The notes beneath the pieces are model-generated. The model worked only from the letters and a program-made list of their open reading frames with translations, made no database searches and was not told where the DNA came from. The position numbers and the translations under genes are program-made. Source: Bacteroidaceae bacterium (GTDB taxonomy: Bacteria > Bacteroidota > Bacteroidia > Bacteroidales > Bacteroidaceae). From it: a DNA stretch of 64,000 bases. The DNA lies in contig JAGBTN010000017.1 in assembly GCA_017631315.1 (NCBI GenBank), positions 1 to 64,000 of the forward strand, written 5' to 3'. Each line of letters opens with the position of its first letter. Within the stretch, counting starts at the first letter, position 1. Below are positions 147 to 59,889 of the stretch, one piece after another.

Positions 147-234
147 AAAGGTTAACCCAATTGCCGATAATGCTTAACCTTTCTGGCAATAATGGTTAAC
201 CTAATTGCCGATAATGGTGAAGGGTTTTGGATGG
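147..234. repeat. 22-bp-period array, GGTTAACC family (locus a)
   Basis: Units start at 147, 169 and 191, with a degenerate fourth at 213. Each carries a core like AATGGTTAACC or AATGCTTAACC followed by a variable tract ending in TTGCCGAT or TGGCAAT. Unit 1 and unit 3 are inverted complements (AGGTTAACC..ATTGCC against GGCAAT..GGTTAACCT), so the array can fold into a hairpin with the middle unit as its loop. Confidence 0.85.
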
Positions 235-413
235 GGAGGTTATGGTGCTGTTGTCTCGGCGGCAGGGTTTGCTGTGCAATGGGTGAGGCTTTGGGGTGTT
301 TGGGGGATTGGCTTTATTTGTGTTTTTTGCGGTTCGGCGCTTATTTGTTTTTAATGGTATTCTCTGTGGGGAAGTCAAAAGTGTGATGTAAGGAAAAAAA
401 AGTTTTGCATTGT

Positions 414-444
414 TTTGTTCTTATTGGAAATATCCGTACCTTTG
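414..444 (+). promoter_or_regulatory. Promoter of the carB leader
   Basis: TTTG at 414-417 and TACCTTTG at 437-444 are 19 bp apart, a close match to the Bacteroides -33/-7 consensus. Transcription should start near 450, giving carB a 5' leader of over 200 nt that contains a small reading frame and a terminator-like hairpin. Confidence 0.75.
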
Positions 445-461
445 TATGCGCAATTGAAACT

Positions 462-551
462 ATGATGCAGACCAGTTACTTTATAACACAGATGCGAGAC
501 GAAAAGCAGATGACGTCTGGCATTGATGTTTGTTTAGTAATAAATTATTAA
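462..551 (+). CDS. Putative 29-residue leader peptide of carB
   Basis: The frame opens with tandem ATG codons about 12 nt after the predicted transcription start and ends with TAA at 549-551. It contains MMQTSYFITQ near the start and DVCLVINY at the end. Its stop codon touches the left arm of a U-tailed hairpin (550-590), the layout of a ribosome-controlled attenuator. An internal pairing between ATGCAGAC (465-472) and GTCTGGCAT (515-523) could form an alternative fold. The peptide has only one arginine codon and no run of any single amino acid, so the sensed signal is not obvious. Attenuation is my inference; the reading frame and hairpin are visible. It could also be a chance frame inside a small noncoding RNA. 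Confidence 0.45.
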   Translation: MMQTSYFITQMRDEKQMTSGIDVCLVINY

Positions 552-590
552 CCACTTTCGCTGTTTTTTTAGCGCAGGTGGTTTTTTTTG
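550..590 (+). terminator. Intrinsic terminator or attenuator in the carB leader
   Basis: ACCAC pairs with GTGGT and CGCT with AGCG around a T-rich loop, followed by eight T residues at 82-89 of the 500s (582-589). It sits between promoter and carB start, so it should either end a short RNA of about 140 nt or control read-through into carB. Confidence 0.7.
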
Positions 591-668
591 GAACTGCTCT
601 TGTGTTCTCTTTGAAATAGAGACGTTTGCGATAAATGAATACTCTAAAATATAAAAACTGATAATATT

Positions 669-3600
669 ATGCAACTGAAGAAAGTTCTCGTATTAGGTAG
701 CGGTGCGCTGAAGATTGGTCAGGCTGGTGAGTTTGACTATTCTGGCAGTCAGGCTTTGAAGGCACTGCGTGAGGAAGGCATCTATTCGGTGCTGGTGAAC
801 CCCAATGTGGCAACCATTCAAACCAGTGAAGGTGTTGCCGACAAGGTCTATTTCCTGCCTATCACTCCATATTTCATTGAGGAGATTATCAAGAAGGAGC
901 GTCCTGATGGCATTATGTTGGCTTGGGGCGGCCAGACTGCTCTCAATGTCGGTACGGCTCTCTATTTGAATGGCGTGCTGGAGAAGTATGGTGTGAGTGT
1001 GCTTGGTACAAGCGTGGAATCTATCATGAATACTGAGGACCGTGACCTTTTTGTTAAGGAACTGGACAAGATTGACATGAAGGTTCCCACAAGCCGTGCT
1101 TGTGAGACGATGGAGGAGGCTGTTGCAGCAGCTCATAGCATTGGTTTCCCCATTATGATTCGTTCGGCTTATGCACTGGGCGGCTTGGGCAGCGGTGTTT
1201 GTAAGGATGAGGAGACTTTCCGCAACATTGCTGAGAGTGCTTTCACTTTTGCGCCTCAGGTGCTCGTTGAAGAGAGTCTGAAGGGCTGGAAGGAGATTGA
1301 GTTCGAATGTATTCGTGATGCGAACGATCATTGCTTCACGGTTGCTTCTATGGAGAACTTCGACCCGCTCGGCATCCATACCGGCGAGAGTATCGTTGTG
1401 GCTCCTACCTGTTCGCTGACTGAGGAGCAGGTGAAGATGTTGCAGGAAATCAGTGTTAAGTGCGTACGTCATTTGAACATCGTGGGTGAGTGCAACATCC
1501 AGTTCGCATTCAACGCTGTTACAAATGACTATCGTATTATCGAAATAAATGCTCGCCTGTCTCGTTCTTCCGCTTTGGCAAGTAAGGCCACGGGCTATCC
1601 CTTGGCATTCGTTGCAGCAAAGATTGCTCTCGGCTATACACTCGACCAGATTGGCGAGATGGGTACTACAAACAGTGCATACGTTGCTCCTTCTCTTGAC
1701 TACCTCATCTGCAAGATACCTCGTTGGGACCTCACTAAGTTTGCAGGTGTAAGCCGTAAGATTGGCTCAAGCATGAAGTCTGTGGGTGAGATTATGAGCA
1801 TCGGTCGCTCGTTCGAAGAGATGTTGCAAAAGGGCCTGAGAATGATAGGTCAAGGCATGCACGGCTTTGTGTGCAACGAGCACATCAATTTCGACAACCT
1901 CGATGAGGAACTCGCTAACCCGACAGACCTCCGTATCTTTGCTCTTGCTCAAGCACTCGAGGAAGGCTATACCGTAGAACGCATCGAGGAATTGACGAAG
2001 ATAGATCCTTGGTTTATCGAACGTTTGAAGAATATCGTTGACTTCAAACATAAGTTACAGACATACAATGCCATCGAGGAACTGCCTGCTGACGTATTGC
2101 GCCAGGCAAAGGTTCTTGGCTTCAGCGACTTTCAAATTGCACGCTGCGTCATGGATACTTGCGCAGGAAACATGGAGAAGGAAAACCTGCAGGTGCGTGA
2201 GTATCGTAAGAAACTCGGAATCCTGCCCGCAGTCAAGCGTATCCCGACTGTTGCCAGCGAGCATCCCGATTTGACAAACTACCTTTACATGACTTATGCA
2301 GTAGAGGGTTATGACGTTAATTACTACAAGAACGAGAAATCAGTTATCGTTCTTGGCAGTGGAGCTTATCGCATCGGCTCAAGTGTAGAGTTCGACTGGT
2401 GTTCTGTCAATGCTATTGAAACAGCACGCAAGTTGGGCTACAAGAGCATCATGATTAACTATAATCCCGAAACTGTTTCAACAGACTATGACATTTGCGA
2501 CCGCTTGTATTTCGACGAATTGTCGTTCGAACGCGTGCTCGACGTTATAGACCTTGAATCTCCCCGCGGTGTGATTGTATCAACAGGCGGTCAGATCCCT
2601 AACAATCTTGCGATGAAACTTTATCGCCAGAGTGTGCCCATCCTCGGAACTTCGCCCATCAGCATCGACCGTGCAGAGAATCGCGGTAAGTTCTCGGCAA
2701 TGCTTGACAAGCTTGGCATTGACCAACCTCGTTGGAGTGCCTTGACAAGTATGGAGGATGTGAAGCAGTTTATCGACGAGGTGGGCTATCCTGTTTTGGT
2801 TCGTCCGTCGTATGTTCTCTCTGGTGCTGCTATGAATGTTTGCTATACCGACGAGGAGTTGGAGCGTTTCCTGCAGATGGCAAGTGAGGTGAGCAAGGAG
2901 TATCCTGTTGTCATCAGCCAGTTTATGACTGAGACAAACGAGGTAGAGTTCGATGCAGTTGCTCAGAATGGTGAGATTGTGGAGTATGCAATCTCTGAAC
3001 ATGTAGAGTATGCCGGTGTACATTCTGGTGATGCTACGATGGTATTCCCTGCTCAGCAGATCAGTTTTGCAACGGCGCGTCAGGTGAAGAAGATGAGTCG
3101 TGCTATCGCCAAGGAGTTGAACATCAGTGGTCCTTTCAATATTCAGTATCTTACAAAGGGCAGAGATGTGAAGGTTATTGAATGTAATCTTCGTGCGAGT
3201 CGCTCTTTCCCGTTTGTCAGCAAGGTGTTGAAGCGCAATTTCATTGAGACTGCTACGCGCATTATGCTTGATGCTCCTTATGCTAAGCCCGACAAGAGTG
3301 CTTTCGACATTGACCATATTGGTGTGAAGGCCAGCCAGTTCTCTTTTGCTCGTTTGCAGAATGCCGACCCCATTCTTGGTGTTGATATGAGTTCTACGGG
3401 CGAGGTTGGCTGCATTGGCGAGAGCTTCGAGGAGGCTTTGTTGAACAGCCTTATTGCAACCGGTTATAAGATTCCTAACAAGGAGAAGGGTGTAATGATC
3501 AGCAGTGGTGGCACGAAGGAGAAGGTTGATATGCTTGATGCTGCTCGTATGTTGACGAAGGCTGGCTATACGATTTATGCCAGTGAGGGCACTGCGAAGT

Positions 3601-3890
3601 TCTTGAATGAGAATGGTGCGAAGGCGATTGCTGTCAGCTGGCCTGATGAAGAGAAGCCTGGAATGGAGAATGTGATGCAGTTGATTTCAGACCATCGTTT
3701 CGATCTTGTGGTTAATATCTCCAAGAATCGTACTAACCGTGAGCTTAGCAATGGCTACAAGATTCGTCGTGCTGCTATTGATCACAACATTCCTTTGATT
3801 ACTAATGCTCGTCTGGCAAGTGCCTTCATTGAATCTTTCTGCATGCTTTCTGTTGATGACCTCAACATTAAGAGCTGGAACGAGTATTAA
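669..3890 (+). CDS. carB: Carbamoyl phosphate synthase large subunit
   Basis: Makes carbamoyl phosphate from bicarbonate, ATP and glutamine-derived ammonia, for pyrimidine and arginine synthesis, in the cytoplasm with CarA. The 1,073 residues are the full family length. Two homologous halves are visible: the first opens with VLGSGALKIGQAGEFDYSGS, the second near residue 560 with VIVLGSGAYRIGSSVEFDW, each followed by an ATP-grasp region (EINARLSRSSALASKATGYP in the first, ECNLRASRSFPFVSKVLKRN in the second). The last 130 residues form the MGS-like allosteric domain (GVMISSGGTKEKVDML). The ATG at 669 places the nucleotide-binding motif right at the N terminus, as expected. No carA is adjacent inside the window. 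A leader with a possible attenuator precedes it, and a glycosyltransferase follows after 3 nt. Confidence 0.97.
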   Translation: MQLKKVLVLGSGALKIGQAGEFDYSGSQALKALREEGIYSVLVNPNVATIQTSEGVADKVYFLPITPYFIEEIIKKERPDGIMLAWGGQTALNVGTALYLNGVLEKYGVSVLGTSVESIMNTEDRDLFVKELDKIDMKVPTSRACETMEEAVAAAHSIGFPIMIRSAYALGGLGSGVCKDEETFRNIAESAFTFAPQVLVEESLKGWKEIEFECIRDANDHCFTVASMENFDPLGIHTGESIVVAPTCSLTEEQVKMLQEISVKCVRHLNIVGECNIQFAFNAVTNDYRIIEINARLSRSSALASKATGYPLAFVAAKIALGYTLDQIGEMGTTNSAYVAPSLDYLICKIPRWDLTKFAGVSRKIGSSMKSVGEIMSIGRSFEEMLQKGLRMIGQGMHGFVCNEHINFDNLDEELANPTDLRIFALAQALEEGYTVERIEELTKIDPWFIERLKNIVDFKHKLQTYNAIEELPADVLRQAKVLGFSDFQIARCVMDTCAGNMEKENLQVREYRKKLGILPAVKRIPTVASEHPDLTNYLYMTYAVEGYDVNYYKNEKSVIVLGSGAYRIGSSVEFDWCSVNAIETARKLGYKSIMINYNPETVSTDYDICDRLYFDELSFERVLDVIDLESPRGVIVSTGGQIPNNLAMKLYRQSVPILGTSPISIDRAENRGKFSAMLDKLGIDQPRWSALTSMEDVKQFIDEVGYPVLVRPSYVLSGAAMNVCYTDEELERFLQMASEVSKEYPVVISQFMTETNEVEFDAVAQNGEIVEYAISEHVEYAGVHSGDATMVFPAQQISFATARQVKKMSRAIAKELNISGPFNIQYLTKGRDVKVIECNLRASRSFPFVSKVLKRNFIETATRIMLDAPYAKPDKSAFDIDHIGVKASQFSFARLQNADPILGVDMSSTGEVGCIGESFEEALLNSLIATGYKIPNKEKGVMISSGGTKEKVDMLDAARMLTKAGYTIYASEGTAKFLNENGAKAIAVSWPDEEKPGMENVMQLISDHRFDLVVNISKNRTNRELSNGYKIRRAAIDHNIPLITNARLASAFIESFCMLSVDDLNIKSWNEY

Positions 3891-3893
3891 GGC

Positions 3894-5024
3894 ATGCACA
3901 TTCTTGAACTCCCTTCTTTCTTCCCGCCTCACGGCGGTCTGTTCTGCCTGGAACAGGCAAGGGCTTTGAAGGCTGCGGGTCATGAGGTGCGCATTGTGAG
4001 TGTTGTGGAACTGGGCGTCACGTTGGACCGCTGGTTTTACCTCACGGCACCTTGGCGAGAGGAGAGAAGGGAGTTGGAGGGTGTGGAAGTTTTCTGCACT
4101 TATATGCGGGCTGTCCCTAAGGCGGTCCGCTATAATGTTAATTATTGGATAAGTCTTTGTGAGAAGGCTGTCGACAGGTATATTGTCCGTTTTGGCAAGC
4201 CTGATGTTCTGCATGCTCATTGTTGTAAGAGTGCGGGCTTGGCGGCCGAGGCGATTTCCCGACGTTTGGGTATTCCTTTTTTCATTACGGATCATATTCC
4301 TTCCGGTTTTTACGAGCGTGACTTCGGGCAGGGATGGCAGCGACATGCTTGGCTGAAGGAGCGGATGCGTTGTGCTTACGAGGCTGCAAGGTGTGTGATT
4401 CCTGTCAGTCGGGAACTGGTGGACGACCTTGTGCCTTACTTTGGCAGGGGTTATCACTATTGTCCTATTTCTAATGTTATCGATACGGATTTCTATTCTT
4501 TCCGTGAGCGTAAGCCTCTTGGAGGCCGTTCGTTTGTTTTTTGTTGTCTGGCTGTTGCTGATGTCTATCGCAAGGGTTATGATGTTTTGGCAGAGGCTGT
4601 CAAGCGGTTGGACAATGTGACGCTCCACATTGCGGGGCAGGGTACGGATTCTCGTTGTATGCGCGAACTTTTTGCGGGACTGGCGAATGTGCATTTCCAT
4701 GGTCATTTGGACAAGGCTGGTGTGCGTTCTTTGTTGTGGGAGAGCGATGCTTTGGTGTTGCCAAGCCGCAGCGAGGCGCAGCCGTTGGTTGTGCTGGAGG
4801 CTCTTTCTACGGGTATTCCTGTGGTCGGCACCGAGTGCCTGCCGACTTCTCTCCGTGTGCCCGATGCTTGTCTGATTGCCCCCATTGGCGATGCCGGGCA
4901 GTTGGCAGAGGCGATGCGGAGCGTGATGAGTATGCCTTGTTCTCGTGAGTATTCTGCTGCTGTGCAGCGCATGGCTTCACCTTCTGTTGTGGCAAGTCAG
5001 TTGACGTCGCTCTTCGAGAGTTGA
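3894..5024 (+). CDS. GT4-type glycosyltransferase
   Basis: A 376-residue GT-B fold glycosyltransferase. The N-terminal half starts with a typical acceptor-domain strand (HILELPSFFPPHGGLFCLEQ) and contains PDVLHAHCCKSAGLAAEA. The C-terminal nucleotide-sugar domain shows NVIDTDFYSF, a glycine-rich CLAVADVYRKGYDVL segment, and the family E-x7-E region in SRSEAQPLVVLEALSTGIPV. It probably transfers a sugar from a nucleotide donor to a cell-surface glycan; donor and acceptor cannot be read from sequence. No signal peptide or membrane span is evident. The start is 3 nt after the carB stop, so it is likely co-transcribed, though the pairing has no obvious metabolic logic. Confidence 0.85.
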   Translation: MHILELPSFFPPHGGLFCLEQARALKAAGHEVRIVSVVELGVTLDRWFYLTAPWREERRELEGVEVFCTYMRAVPKAVRYNVNYWISLCEKAVDRYIVRFGKPDVLHAHCCKSAGLAAEAISRRLGIPFFITDHIPSGFYERDFGQGWQRHAWLKERMRCAYEAARCVIPVSRELVDDLVPYFGRGYHYCPISNVIDTDFYSFRERKPLGGRSFVFCCLAVADVYRKGYDVLAEAVKRLDNVTLHIAGQGTDSRCMRELFAGLANVHFHGHLDKAGVRSLLWESDALVLPSRSEAQPLVVLEALSTGIPVVGTECLPTSLRVPDACLIAPIGDAGQLAEAMRSVMSMPCSREYSAAVQRMASPSVVASQLTSLFES

Positions 5025-5134
5025 TTCTGCCGAGCCTTTATCCGGCTGATATTCTGCGTGTTTTGTTGGGCCCGCAGGCGATGGGGATGTATGTCGTTTG
5101 CCTCGCAAATATACGCCTTGTGCTTTGTCCGAAA

Positions 5135-5222
5135 ACATCTACTGCCTGATTGCCCGAAATGGTTAACCTTTCCGGCCGACTTGACGTGCCTCGTTGCCCA
5201 ATTAGGCAGTAGATGTTTTTCT
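5135..5222. repeat. Mixed 22-bp-period array with inverted outer units (locus b)
   Basis: Four 22-bp units start at 5135, 5157, 5179 and 5201. The second has the AAATGGTTAACC core of the other arrays. The first begins ACATCTACTGCC and the last is its inverted complement, giving arms AAAACATCTACTGCCT (5132-5147) and AGGCAGTAGATGTTTT extending to about 21 bp with one mismatch. Two unit families therefore share one array in register. Confidence 0.85.
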
Positions 5223-5294
5223 TGAAGGCGTGCCGTCTGACAATGCTGGAGCAACATTTCCCTAAAAAAAGCATAATAAATTCTGTCTTTATAC

Positions 5295-5323
5295 TTGAGA
5301 TTGTAAGGTTTTTTTTAACTTTG
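5295..5323 (+). promoter_or_regulatory. Promoter of the ricin-lectin-like/sulfatase operon
   Basis: TTG at 5295-5297 and TAACTTTG at 5316-5323, 18 bp apart, match the Bacteroides -33/-7 pattern upstream of the gene at 5454. Confidence 0.6.
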
Positions 5324-5453
5324 CATCGTTAGAATATGGCTTTCGTGTTTTTGCCCAATTTGTGGCTTCACATACGGGCATGTAATGGAATTTGCACTTT
5401 CTGCACGACGTTAAATAGAGAAAGTATATACAATCACATTAATTTATATTAGC

Positions 5454-6887: not shown

Positions 6888-6899
6888 AAAAGAACAACT

Positions 6900-9883: not shown

Positions 9884-9971
9884 ACAGGTTAAGGGTTTTG
9901 GCAATAATGGTTAACCATTCCGGCCAAAACCCTTAACCTTTATTCAAATAATGCTTAACCTTTTTGGAGGA
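9884..9971. repeat. 22-bp-period array with 17-bp inverted arms (locus c)
   Basis: Units start at 9884, 9906, 9928 and 9950 between convergent genes. Unit 1 and unit 3 contain perfect 17-bp inverted arms, AGGTTAAGGGTTTTGGC (9886-9902) and its complement (9923-9939). Both arms depart from the usual core in a matching way, which keeps the pairing. Unit 2 (AATGGTTAACC core) forms the loop. Confidence 0.88.
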
Positions 9972-13990: not shown

Positions 13991-14015
13991 ATTGCCTTTT
14001 AGGAGTGTCGTCAAT

Positions 14016-14103
14016 AATGCTTAACCTTTTTGCCCATAATGCTTAACCTTTCTGCCTGTAATGGTTAACCTTTTTGGCAATAATGCTTAACCATTATTTT
14101 TAT
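14016..14103. repeat. 22-bp-period array, GGTTAACC family (locus d)
   Basis: Four units start at 14016, 14038, 14060 and 14082, each beginning AATGCTTAACC or AATGGTTAACC and followed by a T-rich tract and a GCC-type end. This is the most regular copy in the window. It lies between convergent wzc and rodA, after a normal hairpin terminator. Confidence 0.9.
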
Positions 14104-20954: not shown

Positions 20955-21022
20955 TGGAAAGGTGAGGGAAATTTGCCAAATAGGCGTGTCGCGTTTGTCG
21001 ACATCTACTGCCGAGTTTGCCA
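20955..21022. repeat. Degenerate 22-bp-period tract
   Basis: Consecutive 22-nt segments end near TTTGCCA, TTTGTCG and TTTGCCA. The third begins ACATCTACTGCC, identical over 12 bases to unit 1 of the array at 5135. Spacing is right but sequence similarity between units is weak. Confidence 0.4.
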
Positions 21023-27723: not shown

Positions 27724-27732
27724 GTTGCCGGA

Positions 27733-27820
27733 AAAGGTTAACCATTATGGCCGGAATGCTTAACCATTATGCCCTGAAAGGTTAAGCATTATTCCCAATT
27801 AGGCACGCCATGTTTTCCGG
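27733..27820. repeat. 22-bp-period array (locus e)
   Basis: Units start at 27733, 27755, 27777 and 27799. Unit 2 (AATGCTTAACC) and unit 3 (GGTTAAGCATT) are exact inverted complements. The last unit continues as CCCAATTAGGCA, matching the end of the array at 5135. A small hairpin, GCCATG with CATGGC, follows directly. Located between convergent genes. Confidence 0.85.
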
Positions 27821-32527: not shown

Positions 32528-32704
32528 CCTTCCCTGCAGTCCTGACCAACAATTTGTGCGTTGTCTGGCATTGAAGTCAGGACGTCGGAAACGGTCTTTC
32601 AAGTAGAAATAAAATCTCCCCCCGAAGCAGATTCCCAACACCACGCGTCCATTTTTCCAAGTGGACTGCAGGCGCGAAAATCTGCCACTCGTAGGCTTGT
32701 AAAA

Positions 32705-32792
32705 CTTCTCGTGAGTAATTGCCAAAGTTCTGCAGAGAAGTTGCCCGACTTCTCTGCAGAAGTTGGCGAAGTTCTCTGGAGTGTTGTTTTCC
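32705..32792. repeat. 22-bp-period array, CTTCTC family (locus g)
   Basis: Units start at 32705, 32727, 32749 and 32771 and begin CTTCTC or GTTCTC. Units 2 and 3 contain a perfect 14-bp inverted repeat, TTCTGCAGAGAAGT (32728-32741) and ACTTCTCTGCAGAA (32748-32761), with a 6-nt loop. The first unit (CTTCTCGTGAG) resembles the array inside the gene at 59170-59889. Confidence 0.85.
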
Positions 32793-41236: not shown

Positions 41237-41324
41237 ATAGGTTAAGGGTTATTGCAAAAAGGGTGTACCATTATGGCCGTAATGTTTAACCATTATGTTC
41301 AGAATGGTACACCTTTTTTTAGGG
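41237..41324. repeat. 22-bp-period array with covarying arms (locus f)
   Basis: Units start at 41237, 41259, 41281 and 41303. Units 2 and 4 carry GGTGTACCATT and AATGGTACACC, exact inverted complements in which the usual TTAAC has become TGTAC on both sides. Unit 4 runs into seven T residues, so the whole can act as a terminator. Unit 1 nearly equals unit 1 of the array at 9884. Confidence 0.88.
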
Positions 41325-50340: not shown

Positions 50341-50381
50341 ATTTTCTTCTTATTTTCTTATTCTCATATTTTCTAAATTTC

Positions 50382-53300
50382 TTATTCTCTTATTTCCTTA
50401 TTTTCTTCTGACTTTGGCTTCTTGTTCAAGCGCCAAGTGACGTGGAAGAGGGCGTAGGAGGGCAGGACGTTGTAGAAGGTCTCGGTGCGGCCTTGCGCGT
50501 TGATGCTGTGGCGGACGTTGGAGAGCTGGCCGAGCATGTCGAAGCCGTCGAGCTGCAGGAGCAGGTTGCCGTGCATAAGTCGCTTTGTGATGCGTGCATT
50601 CCAGACGAGTTCGTTGGTGTTCATCGTTGCGTCGCTATAGCCTCTGCGCGAGTACATGGTCAGGTCTGTGGCGAGCTGGAAGTTCCATGGCAGTTCAATC
50701 TGTCCGGCGAGACTGTAGTCGAAGTCGAAGACATTGATTCGCGTGAAGTCCGCCCGAGCGCTGGTGGAACGCTGATAGTGCAGGTCGCCTTTTGCCGTGA
50801 GGTCGAGCTTGTCGGTGGGTTTCCACGAGAGAGAAAGCTCGTCGTCGAAGTAGTTGGAGGCCACGACGCTTCGGACATTGTTCATCAAATCAACGCTGTG
50901 ATTGTGTCTGTGCCTGAATGTCTGCTTGAGGCGCAGACGCTCTTTGTGGTCGAGCGGGAAGTCAACGCCGGCAGAAGCATTGGTGTTCCAGTTGCCGTCG
51001 ATGTTCTGCGGCGAACTTGTCCGCACGCCAGTCTGCTTGTCGTAGAGCACGGCTGTGGCGACAGCATCTTGCGTGGCATCGAAACTGAACGAGGCATTGA
51101 CCAGTGTGCGACGCAACTTCTCGCGATAGTTGCCGTAGATGCTGTGGCTGCGCGAAGGGCGAAGATCGGGATTGCCGAGCTGGATGTTGAGCGGGTCGCT
51201 ATCGGTGCGGATATTGAGCAGGCTGCGCATGGAGGGTTGCGAGACGTTCGTCTGATAGCCGCCCCAAATGTTCCGGTTGGTTTTATGATGGGAGTGAGAG
51301 AAGTACAGTCTTGCCGACAGACTGGTGGTGCGGCGGCTCATTGTGGTATCGACCTGTGTGCCCTGCCAGTAGTCGAGCGTCTCATGGATGATGGGCAGCG
51401 AGAGGCTGGCGTTGAGGTTGTTCAATGTTCCTGTTGAGTCGTTGTAGTGACGGAAGCTGTAGCCTATGCTTGGTGCGTTGTTGATGGTCTTGCGGTGCGA
51501 GCGCTGGCTGTTGTCGGCATCGAGCGTTCGCAGCATTTCCTCTGTCGAAGGCAACGTGCCGAGAGGATGCAGCTCTGTGTTCGCCCATTCTTCCATCTGG
51601 TTCAGCAGGTAGAGACTCCTGTTACTTTCATTATTATTATAAGAGAATCCGTCTTCAATCTGAATGTTGTGGTTGTACTTTTGGTCGAGGGCGAAGGTCA
51701 GTTCGGGAATAAGGCTGAAGTCGTGTGTGCGGTCGATGTTGGGACGGTAACGGTTCCTGAAGTCGGATGCCGCCTCAGTCTTTGGGTAATCCAGCAGGTA
51801 GTGCTCGAAGACATCCTCGTATCTGTCGTAGAAGTAGTATTTGTAGTTGAGCATGAAGTTGATGTAGTCGTTGTGGGCAGGACTGACGTTGAAGAAGCCA
51901 TAGTCGTTAATGTTGATGTGACGACCCGTGCCGTGCCGACGCGAGGTGTCGCGGTTGAGGGCATAGCGGCGCAGGAGGTTTCCTGCGTATGGCGTCATCA
52001 GGCTGTCCATCCATGCCTTGCCCCAGCCCTCGGCCACGTCCTCTGCCAGCGTCGCACTCGCGGAGCTGGAGTAGTTCGACCAGTGCAGGTATTCCAGCGA
52101 AACATCGTTGTCGAAATACAAACCCTTGAAGGTTTCCCATAATGTGCCAGGCTTTCGCAGACGTACTTCATGATCTGTGTTCAGGCGAGCATCGTAGCTG
52201 CGGCGCGTGAAGAACGAGCGTCCGTAGGTGTTGCCGCCCTGGAGGAAGGTCTCGCTTGCGGTGTGGTTGGCCTCTTTGCTGTCGGCATAGGTTCCTTTGA
52301 TGCTACCCTGATAACGGAAGTCCTCGCCTTTCTCGTAGAGACCGTTGGCTCCCAAGGTGTAGCTCGTCGTGATTCCCCGCTCCTGTCTTAGTGGCGACCA
52401 CTCGCCCTTCTCGCCTGGCGTGTGGTAGTCGCTCAGGTTGTTGACGTTGGCGAAGAGTGCGATACGCGAGTTCGTGGAGTAGCGCATGGCAAAGGCTCGG
52501 CCGAGGAAGGGTGGGGCTTTCGTCGTCTCTCCGAAGTCCTCCTGACTGCCGAAGCGCTTGCCTATGCCGCCCTCCGCATTCGCGAGCCACGCCGTGTTGT
52601 AGTCGCGCTTCAGTCGTACGTCCATTACCATCTCTTTCTGTGTCGTCTTCTCGCGGATTGTGCCCTTCACGTTGTCGGGTGTTCGCTCGTAGCTTCGGAT
52701 GTCCTTCACCATGTAGGACGGCATGTTGTCGAGGAGCAGCTCGCGGTCGCTGTCGAAGAAGTCCTTGCCGTTGAGCAGCAAGGCATCCACTTTGCGGCCG
52801 TTCACGGTTATCTCTCCTCCGCCTTTCAACTCAACGCCCGGCAGCTTCTTGATGAGTGCGTCGAGCATCGAGCCTTCTGCCATCGAGAAGGCATCCGCGT
52901 CATAGACCAGCGTGTCGCCGTCCATGTAGAACTTCAGCTTAGTGGCCTTCACGACTACTTCATCCATGATGGTGGTGGAGTCGAGAGCCCCCTCTAACTC
53001 CCCCTTGGGGGAGGACTTTTTGGCTCGATGCAGGTAGATGGGCTTCAGGTCGCGGTAGTTTTCGCGCTTGTACATCTTCTGGATCTCGAAGGGAGCAAAG
53101 CGTGTTTGGTAGCCCTTTGCTTCGAGGCGCAACAGGTACTTGCCCGCCTCTTTGATGCTTGCTACGGCGTAGGTGTGGCGCTTGTCATCGTATTTATATT
53201 TATAGCTCTGCACGTGAACAGTATCGACGAAACTGCTGTCGGCAGCACGGAGCAACGTCGCTTTCAGGCTGTCGATGCCGTCATGCGTCAAGTGGTCGGC

Positions 53301-53820: not shown

Positions 53821-55407
53821 ATGAGACATTATTTAATCCTTCTTCTGCTGCTCGCTTCCTGTTCTAATGAGACTATCTTAAGGAAGATGGAGCAGATAAA
53901 GAACTTCGGCAACGAGAGCCCGAGGGAGGCGCTTGCCATGCTCGATTCGCTCGATGTCAGTAGCGAGAGCGAGTACATCAAGAACAAATACAGTTTGCTG
54001 CACATCCGTTTGAGCGACAAGTCAGACATCATGCCCGACTCCGACGAAGAGATAAAGCGGCTGGTAGGATACTTCGAGGCAAAAGGTTCCATCGCGGAAA
54101 AGCAGGAGGGCTATTTCTATGCCGGCAGCACGTACCGTGACTTGCAGGACACGCCCAGGGCTTTGGAGAACTTCTTCAAGTCGCTCGACCTTGCCCTCGA
54201 CTACCCGAAAGAGTGCGACTCCATCATGCTTCGCAACACATACTCCAACCTCACCTACCTCTTCTATATGGTGAAGGATTATCCTGATGCTTTGGAATAT
54301 GGGCTTAAGGAATTGGAGATTTGCAGGCAGACGAAGACCGATGTCGTGATTCCATTCATGCACATCAGGGCTCCGTACCTCGATATGGATAGCTTGCGAC
54401 AGGCGGAGGCAGCAAGTGACTCGGCTTTCGCACACATCATGCAGTCGGGAAACTTCCACAAATATCAGGAGTCGTTGGTCTTTCTGCTGTATAGCTATTC
54501 GTATATAGACAAAGTGGAGAAGGCAAAGAAGTGTCTGCCGCTGATAGAGGGCAATACGTTGGAGGACGGCAATGTATGGCAATGTGTGGCTTTTGCGTTT
54601 TACTATGAGGCATTGGGCAAGAATGACTCGGCTGCCATCTATTGCAAGAAGGTTCTCGAGGATGCGAAGGACACGCTCTATATGTATGATGCAGCAAAAC
54701 ATCTCTTTACATATTACAACGAGTTGGGCGACGAGCGCAATGCCGCCCGATATGCCAAGGCCTACATGGACATAAGCAATGCTTTGGACTTCGGGAGACG
54801 GCAGGAGTTGTCGGCAACGGTCAACAATCAATACAAGTATCACCTCGACCAGAAGGAAGAGCAGCGGCTGAAGGAAGAGAGGGAACGCTACAAGACAATT
54901 CTCCTGCTCCTTGCCCCTTGCTCTCTGCTCCTTATCTCTGTCGGCTACATTCTTTATATGCGAAGGCGGAACAAGCACTTGCAGGACGTCGTCGCCCTCT
55001 CGTCGCAACTGAAGAGGCTCTCCGAAGAAGAGGACAGGCTTCGCGATATGGTCAGGGAGAAGCAGGAACAGAACAAGACCATCCTCCAGTTCCTACACCA
55101 GTCGGAGTTAGAAGGCAAGGCAGAAGATGTCATCCTTGCTGTCCGTCAGTCCTCCACAGGCAAGAGGGACATGACTTCTGCCGAGTGGAAACAACTCTAT
55201 CATGCCGTCGACGAGCTTTACCCGTCGTTCCGGGACAGGCTTCTCAAAGAGCTTGGCACCTTCACGGAACAACAGATTCAGGTCTGCTACCTGATGCGCA
55301 TCGGCCTCTCCAAGCCTCAGATTCAGAACATGGCCAACCTCTCCCGCTCCACCGTCTGGCGCTGGGTCAATAAGTACGATTGGGTAAACACCACGGAAAG
55401 CAAATAA
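53821..55407 (+). CDS. Membrane-anchored TPR regulator with C-terminal helix-turn-helix
   Basis: A 528-residue one-component regulator. The signal sequence carries a lipobox-like LLASC. A TPR-rich region (about 25-335) should lie outside the membrane, followed by a single span near 360-379 (LLLLAPCSLLLISVGYILYM), a cytoplasmic coiled coil (about 385-425) and a helix-turn-helix near 495-519 (GLSKPQIQNMANLSRSTVWR). Related TPR-TM-HTH proteins are common next to surface-protein genes in Bacteroidetes. It presumably senses an envelope signal and acts on nearby DNA; the phased inverted repeat just upstream is a candidate site. A lipidated N terminus would be odd for a bitopic regulator, so the lipobox may be chance. 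Confidence 0.8.
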   Translation: MRHYLILLLLLASCSNETILRKMEQIKNFGNESPREALAMLDSLDVSSESEYIKNKYSLLHIRLSDKSDIMPDSDEEIKRLVGYFEAKGSIAEKQEGYFYAGSTYRDLQDTPRALENFFKSLDLALDYPKECDSIMLRNTYSNLTYLFYMVKDYPDALEYGLKELEICRQTKTDVVIPFMHIRAPYLDMDSLRQAEAASDSAFAHIMQSGNFHKYQESLVFLLYSYSYIDKVEKAKKCLPLIEGNTLEDGNVWQCVAFAFYYEALGKNDSAAIYCKKVLEDAKDTLYMYDAAKHLFTYYNELGDERNAARYAKAYMDISNALDFGRRQELSATVNNQYKYHLDQKEEQRLKEERERYKTILLLLAPCSLLLISVGYILYMRRRNKHLQDVVALSSQLKRLSEEEDRLRDMVREKQEQNKTILQFLHQSELEGKAEDVILAVRQSSTGKRDMTSAEWKQLYHAVDELYPSFRDRLLKELGTFTEQQIQVCYLMRIGLSKPQIQNMANLSRSTVWRWVNKYDWVNTTESK

Positions 55408-55463
55408 CCTCGCGGAAAAGAATAATTCTTCATTCTTAATTCTTCATTCTTAATTTTATTTCG

Positions 55464-55471
55464 TACCTTTG
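55464..55471 (+). promoter_or_regulatory. -7 box of the toxin-antitoxin pair
   Basis: TACCTTTG 29 bp before the antitoxin start, preceded by a 13-bp direct repeat (ATTCTTCATTCTTA) at 55424-55451. Confidence 0.6.
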
Positions 55472-55499
55472 CAGGCATAAAACCTAATACGACGAGATT

Positions 55500-55754
55500 A
55501 TGACGACATTACGTTTACGTGAGGAACTTCTCCGCGAACTTAACCCAATCTTCGACAGCGAGGTGGCGATGCAGAAGACACTCACCGCTCTGCGCGACAT
55601 CCGTCGGGCTGTATTCTCTGAGGTTCCAGCAAGCAAGTCCGCTGTCCGGAAAGGTTGGTCTGCTGCTGCACGCAAAGCACACAAGCAAGGAGATGACCAG
55701 TTGGTCGCTGCCGATGTATTCGACGATGACAAGGTGGGGGACTGGCAATGGTAG
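55500..55754 (+). CDS. Antitoxin-like partner of the MazF-type toxin
   Basis: An 84-residue protein starting MTTLRLREELLRELNPIFDS, helix-rich, with a charged C-terminal tail ending DDKVGDWQW. It is not a recognisable ribbon-helix-helix or AbrB domain by eye, but position and 7-nt overlap with the toxin gene make it the likely antitoxin: it would bind the toxin through its acidic tail and repress the operon. Confidence 0.7.
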   Translation: MTTLRLREELLRELNPIFDSEVAMQKTLTALRDIRRAVFSEVPASKSAVRKGWSAAARKAHKQGDDQLVAADVFDDDKVGDWQW

Positions 55755-56068
55755 AGCAGTTCGATGTCTATTGGGTTGACCTCAACCCGACGGTCGGTGC
55801 TGAGATACAGAAGATTCGTCCCTGCGTAGTGGTAAGCCCTAATGAACTCAACAGGTATCTTGCTACGGTCATCATTATTCCTGTCACATCTGCAGTCCAT
55901 GGCTATCCTTTCCGTGTTGCCTGCCAAATAGACGGACGCGAAGGCGAGATAGTCACCGACCAGATAAGGACGGTTGACAAGAGTCGATTGAAGAAGAGGA
56001 TTACAACACTTGCGCCTGGCGAACAAGCCGAGTTGCAGGACGTGCTCCGTCAGATGTTCTGCGAATGA
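55748..56068 (+). CDS. MazF/PemK-type endoribonuclease toxin
   Basis: A 106-residue type II toxin. Family landmarks are FDVYWVDLNPTVGAEIQKIR with PCVVVSPNELNRY, the VIIIPVTSA strand, and IVTDQIRTVDKSRL with the catalytic threonine/arginine environment. It would cleave mRNA when the antitoxin is lost. It overlaps the antitoxin gene by 7 nt and ends at a hairpin (56075-56106). Confidence 0.92.
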   Translation: MVEQFDVYWVDLNPTVGAEIQKIRPCVVVSPNELNRYLATVIIIPVTSAVHGYPFRVACQIDGREGEIVTDQIRTVDKSRLKKRITTLAPGEQAELQDVLRQMFCE

Positions 56069-56074
56069 CATACT

Positions 56075-56106
56075 CATCCCTCTCCCCATTAAGGCCGAGA
56101 GGGATG
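56075..56106. terminator. Hairpin between the toxin and the convergent secreted-protein gene
   Basis: CATCCCTCTC pairs with GAGAGGGATG around a 12-nt loop. Its CCTCTCCCC composition resembles the palindromic elements at 52988, 59384 and 59715. Confidence 0.7.
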
Positions 56107-56245
56107 AATGTTTCTGTGCATCACTTCGGTGGCTCTTCGCTTCGCTCAGGCGGTTCATTGTCTGTGTTGATTTTACCTTTTATTATATTAAACGCATAGC
56201 CTCGCAAAATATAACGCGAAATGGCGTTAAAGATTCTTAAAGACG

Positions 56246-57352
56246 CTATTCCTTGGGTGCCATGCCTTCGAAGTATGCCTTCTTGCCATTCACGAAGGAC
56301 TTAAGGCTATACCATTCGGTGGGAATCCATTCTACGCCTCTGGTGTTGAGAATGAGGAAGTGGAAGCCGTGGTTGGCAGCTCGCACCTGTATTGAGTTGG
56401 TTTGTTCCGAGATGTTGCGAGTATAGACAGCCAGCATTTTGGAGGGTCTCCCTTCGAAAGATGCGCCATAGTGATATTCGTAGTGTCTGCTCTGCCGACT
56501 ATTGGTAAACCTCAGCGCCATACTATCGATGGCAGCAAGCAATTGCTGGGCGAGCTGCTTCTGGTCTTCAGTTAAAGAATAGATCTTTGCTTCTGTCACG
56601 CCCGCGTAAGCGTATTCTCCATAGTTGACAATATTCATCCATGCTTTCCTGTCTTCTGACTCGTCATCATCCCAGACAGCGCGGGAATATGCTTCATCGT
56701 GCTGCCAGAAGGCATTTCGATGAGTGATGCTGTGCTCGTTGAAGAGGCTTTCGATGTCGTCATTCAGGTCTCCCCAAGTATATGTGTCAGAATATAAGTC
56801 GACACTGGGCAGAGTGACGGTATACTTGAACCGACCTTCGAAGGCATCTTTCGCTTCCCCTGATTCGAGGACGAAGTTGAGAGACTCGTCGGAATAAAAG
56901 TATGTGTATTTGTTATAGCTGTATTTGTGGACTCGCGAGGCATCGCGACAGAAGTTCATGGAATAGAAAATAGTGTCCTTGTAGCCTGTGTGGCTTTCGT
57001 AATGACAAGTGTCCTGTGCCTCTTTTTGCAGATCGGAAAGGGTTCGACGAATAGCCTTCACTTTCTTGTCGAAGCACGCCTTTTCTACTTGCAGCACGCT
57101 ATCTACGAAGAGAGTGTCTTTCCTGCCCCGAATGAGGCCTGGTCTGTAGTAAAAATACAGGGAATAGTCCAAGCTCGGATGACTGCCATAGCCATCCATT
57201 CCACCTCTCTTTACGATAGATGGTGGCCTGTTAAATACTGCTCCTTTCGTTTCCTTGAGTTCTTCAAAGAGCTGGTTTATCTTGGGGTTCACTTGAGCCA
57301 CGGATGTAGCACTCATGAGTGCGGCCATGATGATTGAGATTACCTTTTTCAT
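56246..57352 (-). CDS. Secreted protein of unknown function A
   Basis: A 368-residue protein with a signal peptide (VISIIMAALMSATSVAQ) and no recognised domain. It is rich in Tyr, Asp and Ser, with segments such as YYFRPG-like SLYFYYRPGLIRG, VHKYSYNKYTYFYSD and SLTEDQKQLAQQLLAAIDSM. The C terminus (FHFLILNTRGVEWIPTEWYS) is beta-rich. It lies 210 bp downstream of unknown protein B on the same strand and may belong to the ECF sigma operon, though the gap holds two repeat blocks. Confidence 0.65.
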   Translation of the reverse strand: MKKVISIIMAALMSATSVAQVNPKINQLFEELKETKGAVFNRPPSIVKRGGMDGYGSHPSLDYSLYFYYRPGLIRGRKDTLFVDSVLQVEKACFDKKVKAIRRTLSDLQKEAQDTCHYESHTGYKDTIFYSMNFCRDASRVHKYSYNKYTYFYSDESLNFVLESGEAKDAFEGRFKYTVTLPSVDLYSDTYTWGDLNDDIESLFNEHSITHRNAFWQHDEAYSRAVWDDDESEDRKAWMNIVNYGEYAYAGVTEAKIYSLTEDQKQLAQQLLAAIDSMALRFTNSRQSRHYEYHYGASFEGRPSKMLAVYTRNISEQTNSIQVRAANHGFHFLILNTRGVEWIPTEWYSLKSFVNGKKAYFEGMAPKE

Positions 57353-57397
57353 TGTCTTATTTCATTAGTCTTGTTGCCTGAGATATGCTGTCAAATC

Positions 57398-57463
57398 GAT
57401 TGCACTTACATGTACATGCATTTGCACATACATGTAGGCGCAATTGCATCTTCGTGTAGCAGC
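57398..57463. repeat. 22-bp-period array, ACATGTA family (locus h)
   Basis: Three units start at 57398, 57420 and 57442. They share ATTGCA or TTGCACA at the start and ACATGTA or CGTGTAG in the middle, and two of them end in a GC pair after G. The period is exactly 22 bp. Confidence 0.8.
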
Positions 57464-57490
57464 AAAGAAATGGACTTGTTGGGTTTGAAG

Positions 57491-57556
57491 AAATCTGCTG
57501 CCGCATTTCGCAACGCAGCAGCAGAAAGGCGCCATTTATTAACTCTAAAACTTAAC
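57491..57556. repeat. Dispersed repeat, copy 2
   Basis: Aligns with 53561-53632. It starts AAATCTGCTGCCGCAT and contains CTGCTGC and GCAGCAG as inverted arms, then GGCGCC and TTAACTCTAAAAC. Confidence 0.7.
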
Positions 57557-57562
57557 ATATTT

Positions 57563-59173
57563 TTATTGTTGTTCGTTTGCAGGAAGGTCGCCAACCCTTT
57601 CGAGTACAAAGTCGACGGCTGAAAGCCAACACCCCTTGAAGGGATGCCCCGTGAAGTCCGGGTCGCAGGAAACGCCGTAGGTGAGCTTGCCGTCGCGGAC
57701 CTCGATGCCGTCTATCACTACTTTGTTCCAGCCGTAACCCATTCCGCCGTTTGCCAGAGCGATGCGAACGTCGTTGGGCGAGATTTGTAGTCCCTTCTCG
57801 TCTGCTTCCTTGACGCGAATGGCGGCGTCTCGCCAGATGTCGCCCCCGCGGTCGTCGCAGGCGGGAATCTCGCTCAAGAGCAGGTCTTCGGCCTTTGCAA
57901 AGATGAAGGCACCCGTGTTGCCATGGTAGGAAGTTCTGGCAGCGGCAGTCAACTTGTAGATGCCCGGCTTGAGTTTCGTCTCTTTGCGCTCGGCCGTGTA
58001 TCTCAGTACGCTGTCCTCGTCGGCACAGGCATCGAGGTATTCCAACTCCTTATTGCCCGTGTAGTGCTTACCCGAAACGGCATAGTACCAGCGTCCGTTG
58101 TCGTTCCTTGTCACGGTGAAACCATTGTCGCGAAGGAACTGATGGCGTTTCGTGTCGTGATGGCTCAGGCGGACAGACTCGTTGACCTTCCCCCTCAGGA
58201 TGCTTTCTGCAGCCTTGAAATAGTTTTGTATCTGAGGGTCGCAGTGCTTTGCTTTATCCTCCATGTCGTAGAGTTCCTTCCATATCAATGCGAATTCTTC
58301 GGGTGTGAGAAGGCGTTCGTAGCGTGAGGCTTCACGTTTCAGTGCGAAACCAATCGAGGCGAATTGCGGATTGGGAGTAGCCTTGCAGTATGTGGCGAGC
58401 GCCTCTAACTTGCGCTTCAGGCAGTAAAATCCGTCGTAGAAGTCGGAGAAGTGGTCCATTTGGTGCAATACATCCCGATGATACTTTGCGCTGACTGCCC
58501 ACTTGCCGTCAATATAAGTCGTGTCGATTTCCTGCTTCGGATTGTTCTTTACCGTTTCGCCAACTTTGATGGCCGTGCGGACACTGTCCATCGTGATGCG
58601 GTCGTCTCCCTGTTTAATCTCGACGATTCCCATATCGTAACTAAGATGCTGTGTGATGTAGCCCTTTTTCGCCCCAGTTGGCAGGTCGTCCCATTGCAGG
58701 ATGAAAGCCTGCAGAAGTCCGTCTGGCTTTACATTAAAAATAAGCAACCTCGCGTTCTGGCAGGCGGTGAATATGCAGACGACGTCACGTCCTTTGTCTT
58801 TCGGGCCTATGAATGACCTTAGCCCGCGTGTCGCTTCGCCGCCCGGACCTTTGTGGATGCGGTAGTCTTCCGCTATGTCCCACTGCTCCTCGAACAGCTT
58901 CACAAGTTGCTTCCAGGGCTTTGCATCTTTGCAGGTGAATTTCACAGACATGGCGCTGTCCTTCGGGAAGTCTGTAGGCGGGAAGGTTGTCATGGAATAC
59001 GAGCCTTCGATGATTGTTGTTCTTTTGTCTTTCAGAAAGCTCATGATGGCATTTTGGATGTGGTATGTGCGAACCACTCGCGCTTTGAGCGGCAAAGCCA
59101 GGAACATGCCAAGGAGCAGGATGCTGAGTTGTGTAAGTCTTTTCATAGTGGTATATGTTTTTGTTTGATTCAT
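57563..59173 (-). CDS. Secreted protein of unknown function B (ECF sigma operon)
   Basis: A 536-residue protein with a signal peptide (LTQLSILLLGMFLALPLKA). No domain is recognised with confidence. The first 180 residues (IQNAIMSFLKDKRTTIIEGS, PWKQLVKLFEEQWDIAEDYR, VVCIFTACQNARLLIF) resemble DUF4252/DUF5024-like adhesin-associated modules in style only. The last 170 residues form a beta-sandwich-like carbohydrate-binding pattern (LKPGIYKLTAAARTSYHGNT, VVIDGIEVRDGKLTYGV, WLSAVDFVLERV). The start ATG overlaps the anti-sigma-like stop (ATGA), so translation is coupled and its expression follows the sigma factor. Confidence 0.75.
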   Translation of the reverse strand: MNQTKTYTTMKRLTQLSILLLGMFLALPLKARVVRTYHIQNAIMSFLKDKRTTIIEGSYSMTTFPPTDFPKDSAMSVKFTCKDAKPWKQLVKLFEEQWDIAEDYRIHKGPGGEATRGLRSFIGPKDKGRDVVCIFTACQNARLLIFNVKPDGLLQAFILQWDDLPTGAKKGYITQHLSYDMGIVEIKQGDDRITMDSVRTAIKVGETVKNNPKQEIDTTYIDGKWAVSAKYHRDVLHQMDHFSDFYDGFYCLKRKLEALATYCKATPNPQFASIGFALKREASRYERLLTPEEFALIWKELYDMEDKAKHCDPQIQNYFKAAESILRGKVNESVRLSHHDTKRHQFLRDNGFTVTRNDNGRWYYAVSGKHYTGNKELEYLDACADEDSVLRYTAERKETKLKPGIYKLTAAARTSYHGNTGAFIFAKAEDLLLSEIPACDDRGGDIWRDAAIRVKEADEKGLQISPNDVRIALANGGMGYGWNKVVIDGIEVRDGKLTYGVSCDPDFTGHPFKGCWLSAVDFVLERVGDLPANEQQ

Positions 59174-59889
59174 AATGGGATGTATCGTGTCGTGGTGTCT
59201 ACGAGGTATTCCTCTTGGTAGGCGGTCTCCACTTGCTTTTGGATGATTTTGTTCACCAGGTCCTTGATGCGTTCGTCGGCTCGCATGAGGTCTGTCAACT
59301 CTGCCAGGCAGGTGTTGTCACTGCAGTCGCCCATCTGCTTCTCGAGTTGCGTGAGGTAGTAGTTGAGGCTGTCGGCAGCAGAGCCCCCCTCCAACCTCCC
59401 CCCGAGGAGGGAGGCTTCTTTTCTCCCCTCTCCATGGAGAGGGGTAGGGGGTGAGGCTTTCTCTTCGGCAGACGTCGCTTGTGCCGTCTTCAAACTTCTC
59501 GTGTGAACTTTGGAAACTTCTCGTGTGAAGTTGGCCGACTTCTCGTGTGAACTTTGCGATTTACTCTCGTGTGGTTTTTCGATGACCTTAATGGTGTCTT
59601 TCTGCTCGACAGGCACTTCTTTCGTTTCGGCGAGTTGGGGCTGGCCTTGAGGCTTGAAGTCCCACCAGGCGAAGAGTGCAACGGCTGCAATAAGCACTGC
59701 GGCAGCGGCCAACAGCCCCTCTCTAAACCTCCTCGCGAGGAGGGGGGCTTTTTGGTTTTGAGCCACTAGAGCGTCGAAGAGAGCCTCGTTTTGGTCGAGT
59801 TCGCTTTCAGAGGGCAGTTCCCATTTCTCCTGCTCTATCGGTCGTTTCCCATTGAGGTATTCGTCTATGAAGTGCTTTTTATCCATCAA
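59170..59889 (-). CDS. Membrane anti-sigma-like protein carrying three repeat insertions
   Basis: A 239-residue protein: a cytoplasmic N-terminal segment (HFIDEYLNGKRPIEQEKWEL), one membrane span about 58-76 (GLLAAAAVLIAAVALFAWW), a variable linker and a periplasmic helical end (YYLTQLEKQMGDCSDNTCLA). It overlaps the ECF sigma gene by 11 nt, the usual place of an anti-sigma factor, although it is not a clear FecR or zinc-type anti-sigma protein. Three segments come from repeats: 47-60 (KAPLLARRFREGLL), about 105-135 (22-bp-period array) and about 143-170 (KASPPTPLHGEGRKEASLLG). These lie in or beside the linker and keep the frame open. Confidence 0.75.
   Translation of the reverse strand: MMDKKHFIDEYLNGKRPIEQEKWELPSESELDQNEALFDALVAQNQKAPLLARRFREGLLAAAAVLIAAVALFAWWDFKPQGQPQLAETKEVPVEQKDTIKVIEKPHESKSQSSHEKSANFTREVSKVHTRSLKTAQATSAEEKASPPTPLHGEGRKEASLLGGRLEGGSAADSLNYYLTQLEKQMGDCSDNTCLAELTDLMRADERIKDLVNKIIQKQVETAYQEEYLVDTTTRYIPL
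59384..59456. repeat. Double palindromic element in the anti-sigma-like gene
   Basis: Two adjacent GC-rich palindromes: CCTCCCCCCGAGGAGGGAGG, then CTCCCCTCTCC, ATGGAGAGGGG with a GTAGGGGGTGAGG tail. The composition matches the elements at 52988 and 59715. Confidence 0.75.
59495..59582. repeat. 22-bp-period array inside a coding region (locus i)
   Basis: CTTCTCGTGTGAA recurs at 59495, 59517 and 59539, and a shifted copy lies at 59561-59582. Because 22 is not a multiple of 3 the copies are read in three different frames, none with a stop codon. Confidence 0.9.
59715..59755. repeat. Palindromic element at the membrane span of the anti-sigma-like gene
   Basis: AGCCCCTCTCTAAACC, CCTCGCGAGG, AGGGGGGCTTTTTGG. 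It encodes the KAPLLARRFREGLL segment just before the membrane span. Confidence 0.75.

What the first reader, a model, noticed from the sequence alone, without database searches (positions are those of the whole stretch)
147..59582. Modular 22-bp-period repeat arrays of several sequence families
At least nine short arrays (147, 5135, 9884, 14016, 27733, 32705, 41237, 57398, 59495; a tenth degenerate tract at 20955) all step by exactly 22 bp although their unit sequences fall into different families (cores GGTTAACC, ACATCTACTGCC, CTTCTCGTGTGAA, ACATGTA). Two families occur in one array in register at 5135. The period, about two helical turns, is kept where sequence is not, so spacing seems to be what is selected or copied. 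As far as I know 22-bp direct repeats have been reported in Porphyromonas gingivalis, but a shared period across unrelated unit families and mixed arrays is not something I can place. Possible roles are phased protein binding, a mobile or slippage-driven element, or gene-boundary structure.
Basis: partly seen in the sequence, partly recalled or inferred. Interest (0 to 1): 0.82.

Follow-up and report, generated by a model that had tools for sequence, protein, structure and literature searches.

The report
Intergenic arrays with fixed 22-bp period
Between the genes of this gut bacterium and of many relatives lie short DNA arrays that step by exactly 22 letters even though the letters themselves differ from family to family and often from species to species, so the spacing rather than the sequence seems to be what is kept.

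Summary
Eight of the ten listed sites are clear 22-bp arrays; 5135 holds only as an in-register mixed array; 20955 is weak. In 862 kb of the genome lag 22 gives 47 strict tracts (43 intergenic), every other lag from 8 to 69 gives 0-4 except 44 and 66. Units are mostly dyad-symmetric and families mix in register. Between sister species array sequence diverges like flanking DNA, yet cores stay 22 bp apart (46/46 and 41/42) and whole units come or go. At orthologous 3' ends other species of the genus carry 22-bp arrays, often with unrelated units. An oral Prevotella (identity recalled) shows the same period. RNA-structure tests were negative. Best mechanism, inferred (0.35): dimeric DNA-binding proteins sit on dyads two turns apart and form a boundary, mainly away from gene starts. 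Against it: no protein was found, arrays also lie between divergent genes, conservation of single positions is not shown (15/29 test against 6/14 control sites), and species-specificity of units is strong only for G000 and its sister. Ten paper searches found no description.

The parts
150..218 (.). 22-bp array, cores at 150, 172, 194 (GGTTAACC type)
   Evidence: TRF, lag-22 count 27/36 and core positions
5135..5216 (.). mixed array in register: CTACTGCC 5139, GGTTAACC 5161, GGCAGTAG 5205; ends form a long inverted repeat
   Evidence: core positions; RNA fold z -7.2; no autocorrelation
9887..9960 (.). 22-bp array, cores at 9887, 9909, 9931, 9953
   Evidence: 23/36
14012..14092 (.). 22-bp array, cores at 14019, 14041, 14063, 14085, between convergent genes; the minus-strand gene 14168-15673 matches FtsW/RodA/SpoVE
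   Evidence: 32/36
27728..27809 (.). 22-bp array, cores at 27736, 27758, 27780, then GGCACGCC in register at 27802
   Evidence: 30/36
32703..32782 (.). 22-bp array of the CTTCTCTGCAGAAG family; two units inverted to each other
   Evidence: 25/36
41240..41313 (.). 22-bp array, GGTTAAGG 41240, GGTGTACC 41262, GGTACACC 41306 in register, beside an M48 peptidase gene
   Evidence: 24/36
57399..57448 (.). 22-bp array of the ACATGTA family
   Evidence: 27/36
59491..59573 (.). 22-bp array of the CTTCTCGTGTGAA family, inside ORF 59170-59889 (minus)
   Evidence: 31/36

Best explanation
The arrays are a class of mostly intergenic DNA element defined by geometry. Each is a short row (in the GGTTAACC family most often four) of dyad-symmetric cores exactly 22 bp apart. 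SHOWN: the period, the dyads, mixing of families in register, the location mainly in 3'-type intergenic regions and away from gene starts, constraint on core and spacing with fast-changing linker centres, and turnover of unit families between species. INFERRED: homodimeric DNA-binding proteins of the host sit on successive dyads about two helical turns apart and touch their neighbours, so that the pitch comes from the protein and the letters from its specificity. INFERRED: being palindromic, the filament works from both sides as a boundary, most likely a roadblock to transcription between genes. INFERRED: new families spread by recombination or conversion between arrays, which share register.
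For: Unrelated families share one period and register. Dyad symmetry beats column shuffles in 88% of 50, 77% of 30 and 55% of 20 arrays. Substitution in arrays like flanks (184/1876 vs 196/1700) but fewer gaps that are not a multiple of 22 (11 vs 33, P 3.5e-4), with +22 and -66 changes; cores conserved (8/320 changed), cores 22 bp apart in 46/46 and 41/42 cases. Location: 68 of 222 3'-type against 11 of 66 divergent regions hold an array; median 74 bp from 3' ends, 160 bp from 5' ends. DNA rather than RNA level: order folds no better than permuted, no wobble excess. Other species carry 22-bp arrays with other units at the same 3' ends.
Against: No binding protein was sought or found. Arrays also lie between true divergent genes and, in 4 of 76 cases, inside genes. 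Against random placement in the same regions, arrays are not enriched right at 3' ends (19% within 25 bp vs 21%); what is seen is distance from 5' ends (7% vs 13%). Single positions are not shown to be conserved: 15 of 29 close non-sister relatives at test sites (0 of 7 at M48) against 6 of 14 at control sites, P 0.75. Unit similarity within species exceeds that between species at one locus overall (0.577 vs 0.437), but without G000 and G271 only weakly (0.515 vs 0.473, P 0.06); families such as TTAACGTGTTAA are shared by several species. Some arrays do form long RNA hairpins.
Confidence: 0.35

Rival explanations
1. Bidirectional transcription terminators acting as RNA hairpins: tandem palindromes flanked by A and T tracts stop RNA polymerase from both sides; only folding matters, so sequence drifts.
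For: A-rich left and T-rich right ends; terminator-like score in 33% of arrays vs 14% of other intergenic DNA; 3'-type location; three of seven window arrays fold with z of -5 or below.
Against: Array order folds no better than orientation-matched permutations (P 0.16); no G.T over A.C excess on the sense strand (104 vs 89); array-free convergent regions score as terminators more often (47% of 36); a hairpin does not need exactly 22 bp; arrays between divergent genes.
Confidence: 0.25
2. Neutral minisatellites: replication slippage and conversion between arrays make and keep 22-bp units without function; the period reflects an unknown 22-nt step in the copying machinery.
For: Whole-unit gains and losses (+22, -66), an array whose units all changed together (C1:13026), an exactly inverted linker; linker centres diverge faster than flanks (54/160 vs 196/1700, P 3e-12), as expected if arrays exchange modules.
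Against: Ordinary minisatellites have different periods at different loci; here unrelated families share one period. Cores are conserved (8/320 vs flanks 196/1700). Units are dyad-symmetric.
Confidence: 0.25
3. REP/BIME-like elements mobilised by a Y1 (RAYT) transposase.
For: Intergenic, palindromic, hundreds of copies of the commonest core.
Against: No PF01797 match in 5 of 8 genomes searched, including G000 (87% complete), G271, G177 and G092; contiguous units at one fixed period; many unit sequences.
Confidence: 0.05

Closest known systems
REP/BIME repetitive extragenic palindromes (PMC3733652, passages seen)
   Same: Short palindromic intergenic repeats in high copy
   Different: Here tandem units without gaps at one fixed period, many unit sequences in one genome, no Y1 transposase found in the genome
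BrickBuilt of Porphyromonas gingivalis (PMC4596501, abstract and passages seen)
   Same: Intergenic tandem repeat in the same phylum, with unit number varying between strains
   Different: 23-nt unit of one family inside a MITE with leader and tail, 19 copies; here 22 bp, many families, no such ends seen
TAACTGA heptamer repeats (PMC4679880, abstract and outline seen)
   Same: Abundant short intergenic direct repeats, reported also in five Bacteroidetes
   Different: 7-bp unit of one sequence, in the main species mostly just upstream of start codons
CRISPR arrays (recalled)
   Same: Regular period with palindromic repeat and varying part between
   Different: Varying parts are recombined from a small arm repertoire (39 types among 266), arrays have 2-5 units and lie at many loci
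Operators bound by cooperative dimers and plasmid iterons (recalled)
   Same: Dyads or repeats about two turns apart for protein rows
   Different: One sequence for one protein at few loci; here many families over the genome and no protein known

Membership tests
REP/BIME with RAYT | Y1 transposase (PF01797) in the genome | tested here: not met
   none in G000, G271, G280, G177, G092; present in G138, G208 and weakly G010; G000 is 87% complete
REP/BIME with RAYT | short intergenic palindrome in high copy | tested here: met
REP/BIME with RAYT | conserved terminal tag (GTAG or CGTC) | not tested
   no search for tags was made
BrickBuilt-type MITE | 23-nt unit | tested here: not met
   lag 23 gives 0 tracts in both scans of the genome sample
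BrickBuilt-type MITE | leader and tail with terminal inverted repeats | not tested
   flanks were only profiled by composition
CRISPR | unique spacers between near-identical repeats | tested here: not met
   linkers built from 39 arm types among 266 arms
CRISPR | cas genes nearby | not tested
   no cas search was made
Ordinary minisatellite | period differs between loci of unrelated sequence | tested here: not met
   22 dominates in G000 and G056
Intrinsic terminator | hairpin followed by a T tract | tested here: inconclusive
   33% of arrays, 14% of control regions, 47% of convergent controls
Intrinsic terminator | selection on RNA pairing | tested here: not met
Known structured RNA | match to an Rfam family at an array | tested here: not met
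   only two tRNAs in the window
Phased protein-binding array | a protein bound with 22-bp pitch | not testable with these tools
   needs footprinting or pull-down

The most novel reading that the evidence does not exclude
A bacterial class of chromosomal element defined by period instead of sequence: dyad arrays of fixed 22-bp pitch between genes across a family, whose letters are rewritten as lineages diverge, in step with changing specificity of an unknown DNA-binding protein family; a bacterial counterpart of fast-evolving satellite DNA and its binders.
Probability: 0.3. Interest if true: 0.9.

Novelty: categorically new. Interest (0 to 1): 0.75.

Why it matters
Repeats are normally found by sequence, so a class that shares only its spacing would be missed. 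Arrays lie in 68 of 222 3'-type intergenic regions (at least 100 bp) of this genome's sample. If protein-bound, they point to an unknown boundary system in a large group of gut and oral bacteria, with a factor co-evolving with hundreds of sites; if not, they point to a copying process with a 22-nt ruler. Either can be tested in a culturable carrier.

Tried and rejected
RNA hairpin selection: a first permutation test seemed to show arrays folding worse than chance; with orientation matched the effect vanished, so it reflected unit direction. General inversion of linker centres: 6 of 27 changed units improved by flipping, 6.6 expected; rejected, though one exact linker inversion remains. RAYT: not found. 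Strict terminator: arrays occur between real divergent genes. Conservation of single positions: among close non-sister relatives, test sites rodA 4/6, polA 4/7, U32 7/9, M48 0/7 (one of the seven with only 120 bp downstream) against controls gltX 6/8 and rpsA 3' 0/6 (several of those stretches begin in coding sequence); P 0.75. The array 5' of rpsA in G000 was not found in 4 of 4 relatives. The GGTTAACC pattern itself is near absent outside the genus: one hit each in 7 of 391 other genomes of the phylum sample, so generality rests on sampling by period; stretches of G249, G062, G619, G641, G095, G235 and 3.7 kb of G018 showed no array. The first EM phasing mis-phased part of the arrays and was not used for counts.

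Rows dropped before counts: 2 of 27 orthologous arrays truncated by fetched ends; arrays inside genes or at fetched edges in context counts; G000-G271 pairs; one AG-repeat tract and low-complexity tracts. In one search two tracts of G092 are runs of N and one is an AG repeat, so its 5 is really 2. The Fisher test compared arrays of changed net length with single gap events in flanks; the event-to-event test is.
Full report
CHECK OF THE OBSERVATION. Eight of the ten listed sites are strong at lag 22 and beat every other lag from 10 to 40; 5135 is an in-register mixed array without autocorrelation; 20955 is weak. In 862 kb of the genome (window plus stretches of five contigs) lag 22 gives 47 strict tracts, 43 intergenic, with 22 at lag 44 and 4 at lag 66; all other lags from 8 to 69 give 0-4. 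The looser scan gives 76 tracts at lag 22 and 7 at lag 21. The pattern GGTTAACC-N14-GGTTAACC occurs 414 times in the genome with up to 3 mismatches, against 13 for the pattern read backwards.

ANATOMY. In the commonest family 8-bp cores (GGTTAACC and variants) sit 22 bp apart: 133 pairs at 22, 84 at 44, 38 at 66, 4 at 88 and at most one at any other distance up to 140. The 14-bp linkers are two 5-bp arms around a mostly GC-rich 4-bp centre. Arms come from a limited repertoire (39 types among 266); one arm (ATTAT) usually faces a different one and identical arms rarely face each other, partly because units have a direction. Runs of cores: 4 cores 31, 3 cores 13, 2 cores 11, 5 cores 5, single cores 148. 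The left edge is A-rich and the right edge T-rich. Other families (CTTCTCTGCAGAAG, CACGTTAAG, AGGCACGCC, ACATGTA, TGACCATTCA) show the same step, and alternative cores continue GGTTAACC arrays in register (26 of 116 ends at offset 22). Dyad symmetry exceeds column shuffles (P at most 0.05) in 88% of 50 GGTTAACC-type arrays, 77% of 30 others and 55% of 20 arrays in other genomes; at other lags with at least four tracts the share is 0-15%, except lag 18 (47% of 15), lag 23 (80% of 5) and lag 27 (67% of 6).

CONTEXT. With codon-scored gene calls of my own the 76 tracts lie between tandem (40), convergent (19) and divergent (10) genes, inside genes (4) or at edges (3); background regions of at least 80 bp are 186, 59 and 68. 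GGTTAACC arrays are rarer in divergent regions (5 of 55, P 0.028). Of regions of at least 100 bp, 68 of 222 3'-type and 11 of 66 divergent ones hold an array (P 0.028). Arrays lie a median 74 bp from gene 3' ends and 160 bp from 5' ends, against 81 and 110 for random placement; within 25 bp of a 3' end are 19% (random 21%), of a 5' end 7% (random 13%). So the bias is away from gene starts more than towards gene ends. Several divergent sites are real: genes beside them match FAD_binding_2 and methionine synthase domains, DNA ligase, and S1.

SISTER SPECIES. Twenty-seven array sites were aligned, 25 used. Substitutions: arrays 184/1876, 35-bp flanks 196/1700. Gap events not a multiple of 22: arrays 11, several offsetting each other, flanks 33 (P 3.5e-4). 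Net length changed by a non-multiple of 22 in 4 of 25 arrays; one of these (+25) has a 3-bp gap the other way just outside, so it is one unit. One array differs by exactly 22 and one by 66 bp. In 40 orthologous GGTTAACC units the core differs at 8/320 positions, arms at 40/400, linker centre at 54/160; cores are 22 bp apart in 46/46 and 41/42 cases. One array changed all its units together (C1:13026) and one linker is the exact reverse complement (C1:17896).

OTHER SPECIES. Of 18 genomes sampled by period alone, 11 (G177, G205, G010, G138, G208, G060, G280, G188, G092, G056, G165) showed tracts at lag 22 with other units, and seven (G249, G062, G619, G641, G095, G235, G018) none in the stretches taken. 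In 420 kb of G056 (contig of 1,796,408 bases, recalled as Prevotella melaninogenica chromosome I) lag 22 gives 35 tracts, lag 44 12, lag 14 11 and lag 21 9. In the phylum sample the GGTTAACC pattern occurs in 8 of 392 genomes including G000, once in each of the others.

ORTHOLOGOUS SITES. Downstream of rodA, polA, a U32 peptidase and an M48 peptidase, all beside arrays in G000, 22-bp tracts occur in 8, 6, 9 and 3 of 30 genus loci (G000 and G271 included); for the polA and U32 regions the ten control lags from 17 to 27 occur in 0-2 of 60. Among close relatives other than the sister the counts are 4/6, 4/7, 7/9 and 0/7. Control sites where G000 has no 3' array: gltX 6/8, rpsA 0/6. Together 15/29 against 6/14, P 0.75: arrays are common at 3' ends in this clade, and conservation of single positions is not shown. 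Units at one site often differ, for example GGTTAACC, CGCCGCACGCGG, CCCTATAGGG, CACGTG and ATACTAATACCTCGG types at U32. With gltX included and three tracts away from the sites removed, unit similarity is 0.577 within species (n=34), 0.437 at the same locus between species (n=78) and 0.417 for other pairs (n=278); without G000 and G271 it is 0.515 (n=22), 0.473 (n=48) and 0.452 (n=140), P 0.06 for the first two. Same-locus pairs above 0.6 are 0-7% at rodA, polA and U32 but 40% at gltX, where TTAACGTGTTAA units are shared by several species. So families turn over while the period stays, and several families are shared; full species-specificity is seen for G000 and its sister only.

DNA OR RNA. 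Of seven window arrays folded as RNA, three have z of -5 or below, one -2.7 and three between -0.6 and 0. Across 41 oriented arrays the real order folds no better than orientation-matched permutations (P 0.16). Mismatches at dyad pairs on the sense strand of 58 arrays show no wobble excess (G.T 104, A.C 89). Terminator-like signals are commoner in arrays (33%) than in other intergenic DNA (14% of 207) but commonest in array-free convergent regions (47% of 36). This leans to a DNA-level role without excluding termination.

MECHANISM. The step common to all families and species must come from something other than sequence. A protein that binds dyads and touches its neighbour would set 22 bp and let letters follow its specificity; conversion between arrays in register would spread a new family. 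That the step is 22 and not 21 bp fits protein contacts better than free helical phasing (inference). No protein was sought or found.

KNOWN OR NEW. Papers: PMC5771137 and PMC3733652 (passages), PMC4596501 (abstract and passages), PMC4679880 (abstract and outline), PMC5859096 (listing only). Ten searches of an open-access library listed no paper that I recognised as describing period-defined arrays of this kind; most listed papers were not opened and subscription papers are not covered. 'Categorically new' is my judgement of distance from known kinds; the function is unproven.

Noticed in passing
59170-59889 (minus): A 22-bp array of the CTTCTCGTGTGAA family lies inside an ORF whose translation has a hydrophobic stretch; 4 of 76 tracts in the genome sample lie inside called genes.
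   Followed up: partly
50347-50407: An 8-bp repeat tract (TTCTTATT, also read as period 24), not of the 22-bp kind.
   Followed up: no
G000:C1:17896 (sample coordinates) against G271:C4: A 14-bp linker between two palindromic cores is the exact reverse complement in the sister species, as if inverted in place.
   Followed up: partly
G138, G208, G095: The reversed control pattern CCAATTGG-N14-CCAATTGG occurs 47, 53 and 17 times, suggesting 22-bp arrays with that core in these species.
   Followed up: partly
L073 6479-6700: A Chitinophagaceae MAG carries two neighbouring 22-bp arrays with AGGGTTAACCY cores and highly varied linkers.
   Followed up: no
G056:C1:23976-24415: Two longer 22-bp repeats (AGAGTAACAGAGTAAGTAAGAC, about ten units, in a called ORF, and a related tract beside it) unlike the short dyad arrays.
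   Followed up: no
G056:C1 26149, 38080, 76519, 152491, 323304, 366063, 387836, 391084: A CGCCCTTTTGAAGTCC family sits in long gaps between called ORFs, repeated in similar form, perhaps part of a larger element.
   Followed up: no
G000:C1:13026: All units of a five-unit array between divergent genes differ in the same way between the sister species.
   Followed up: partly
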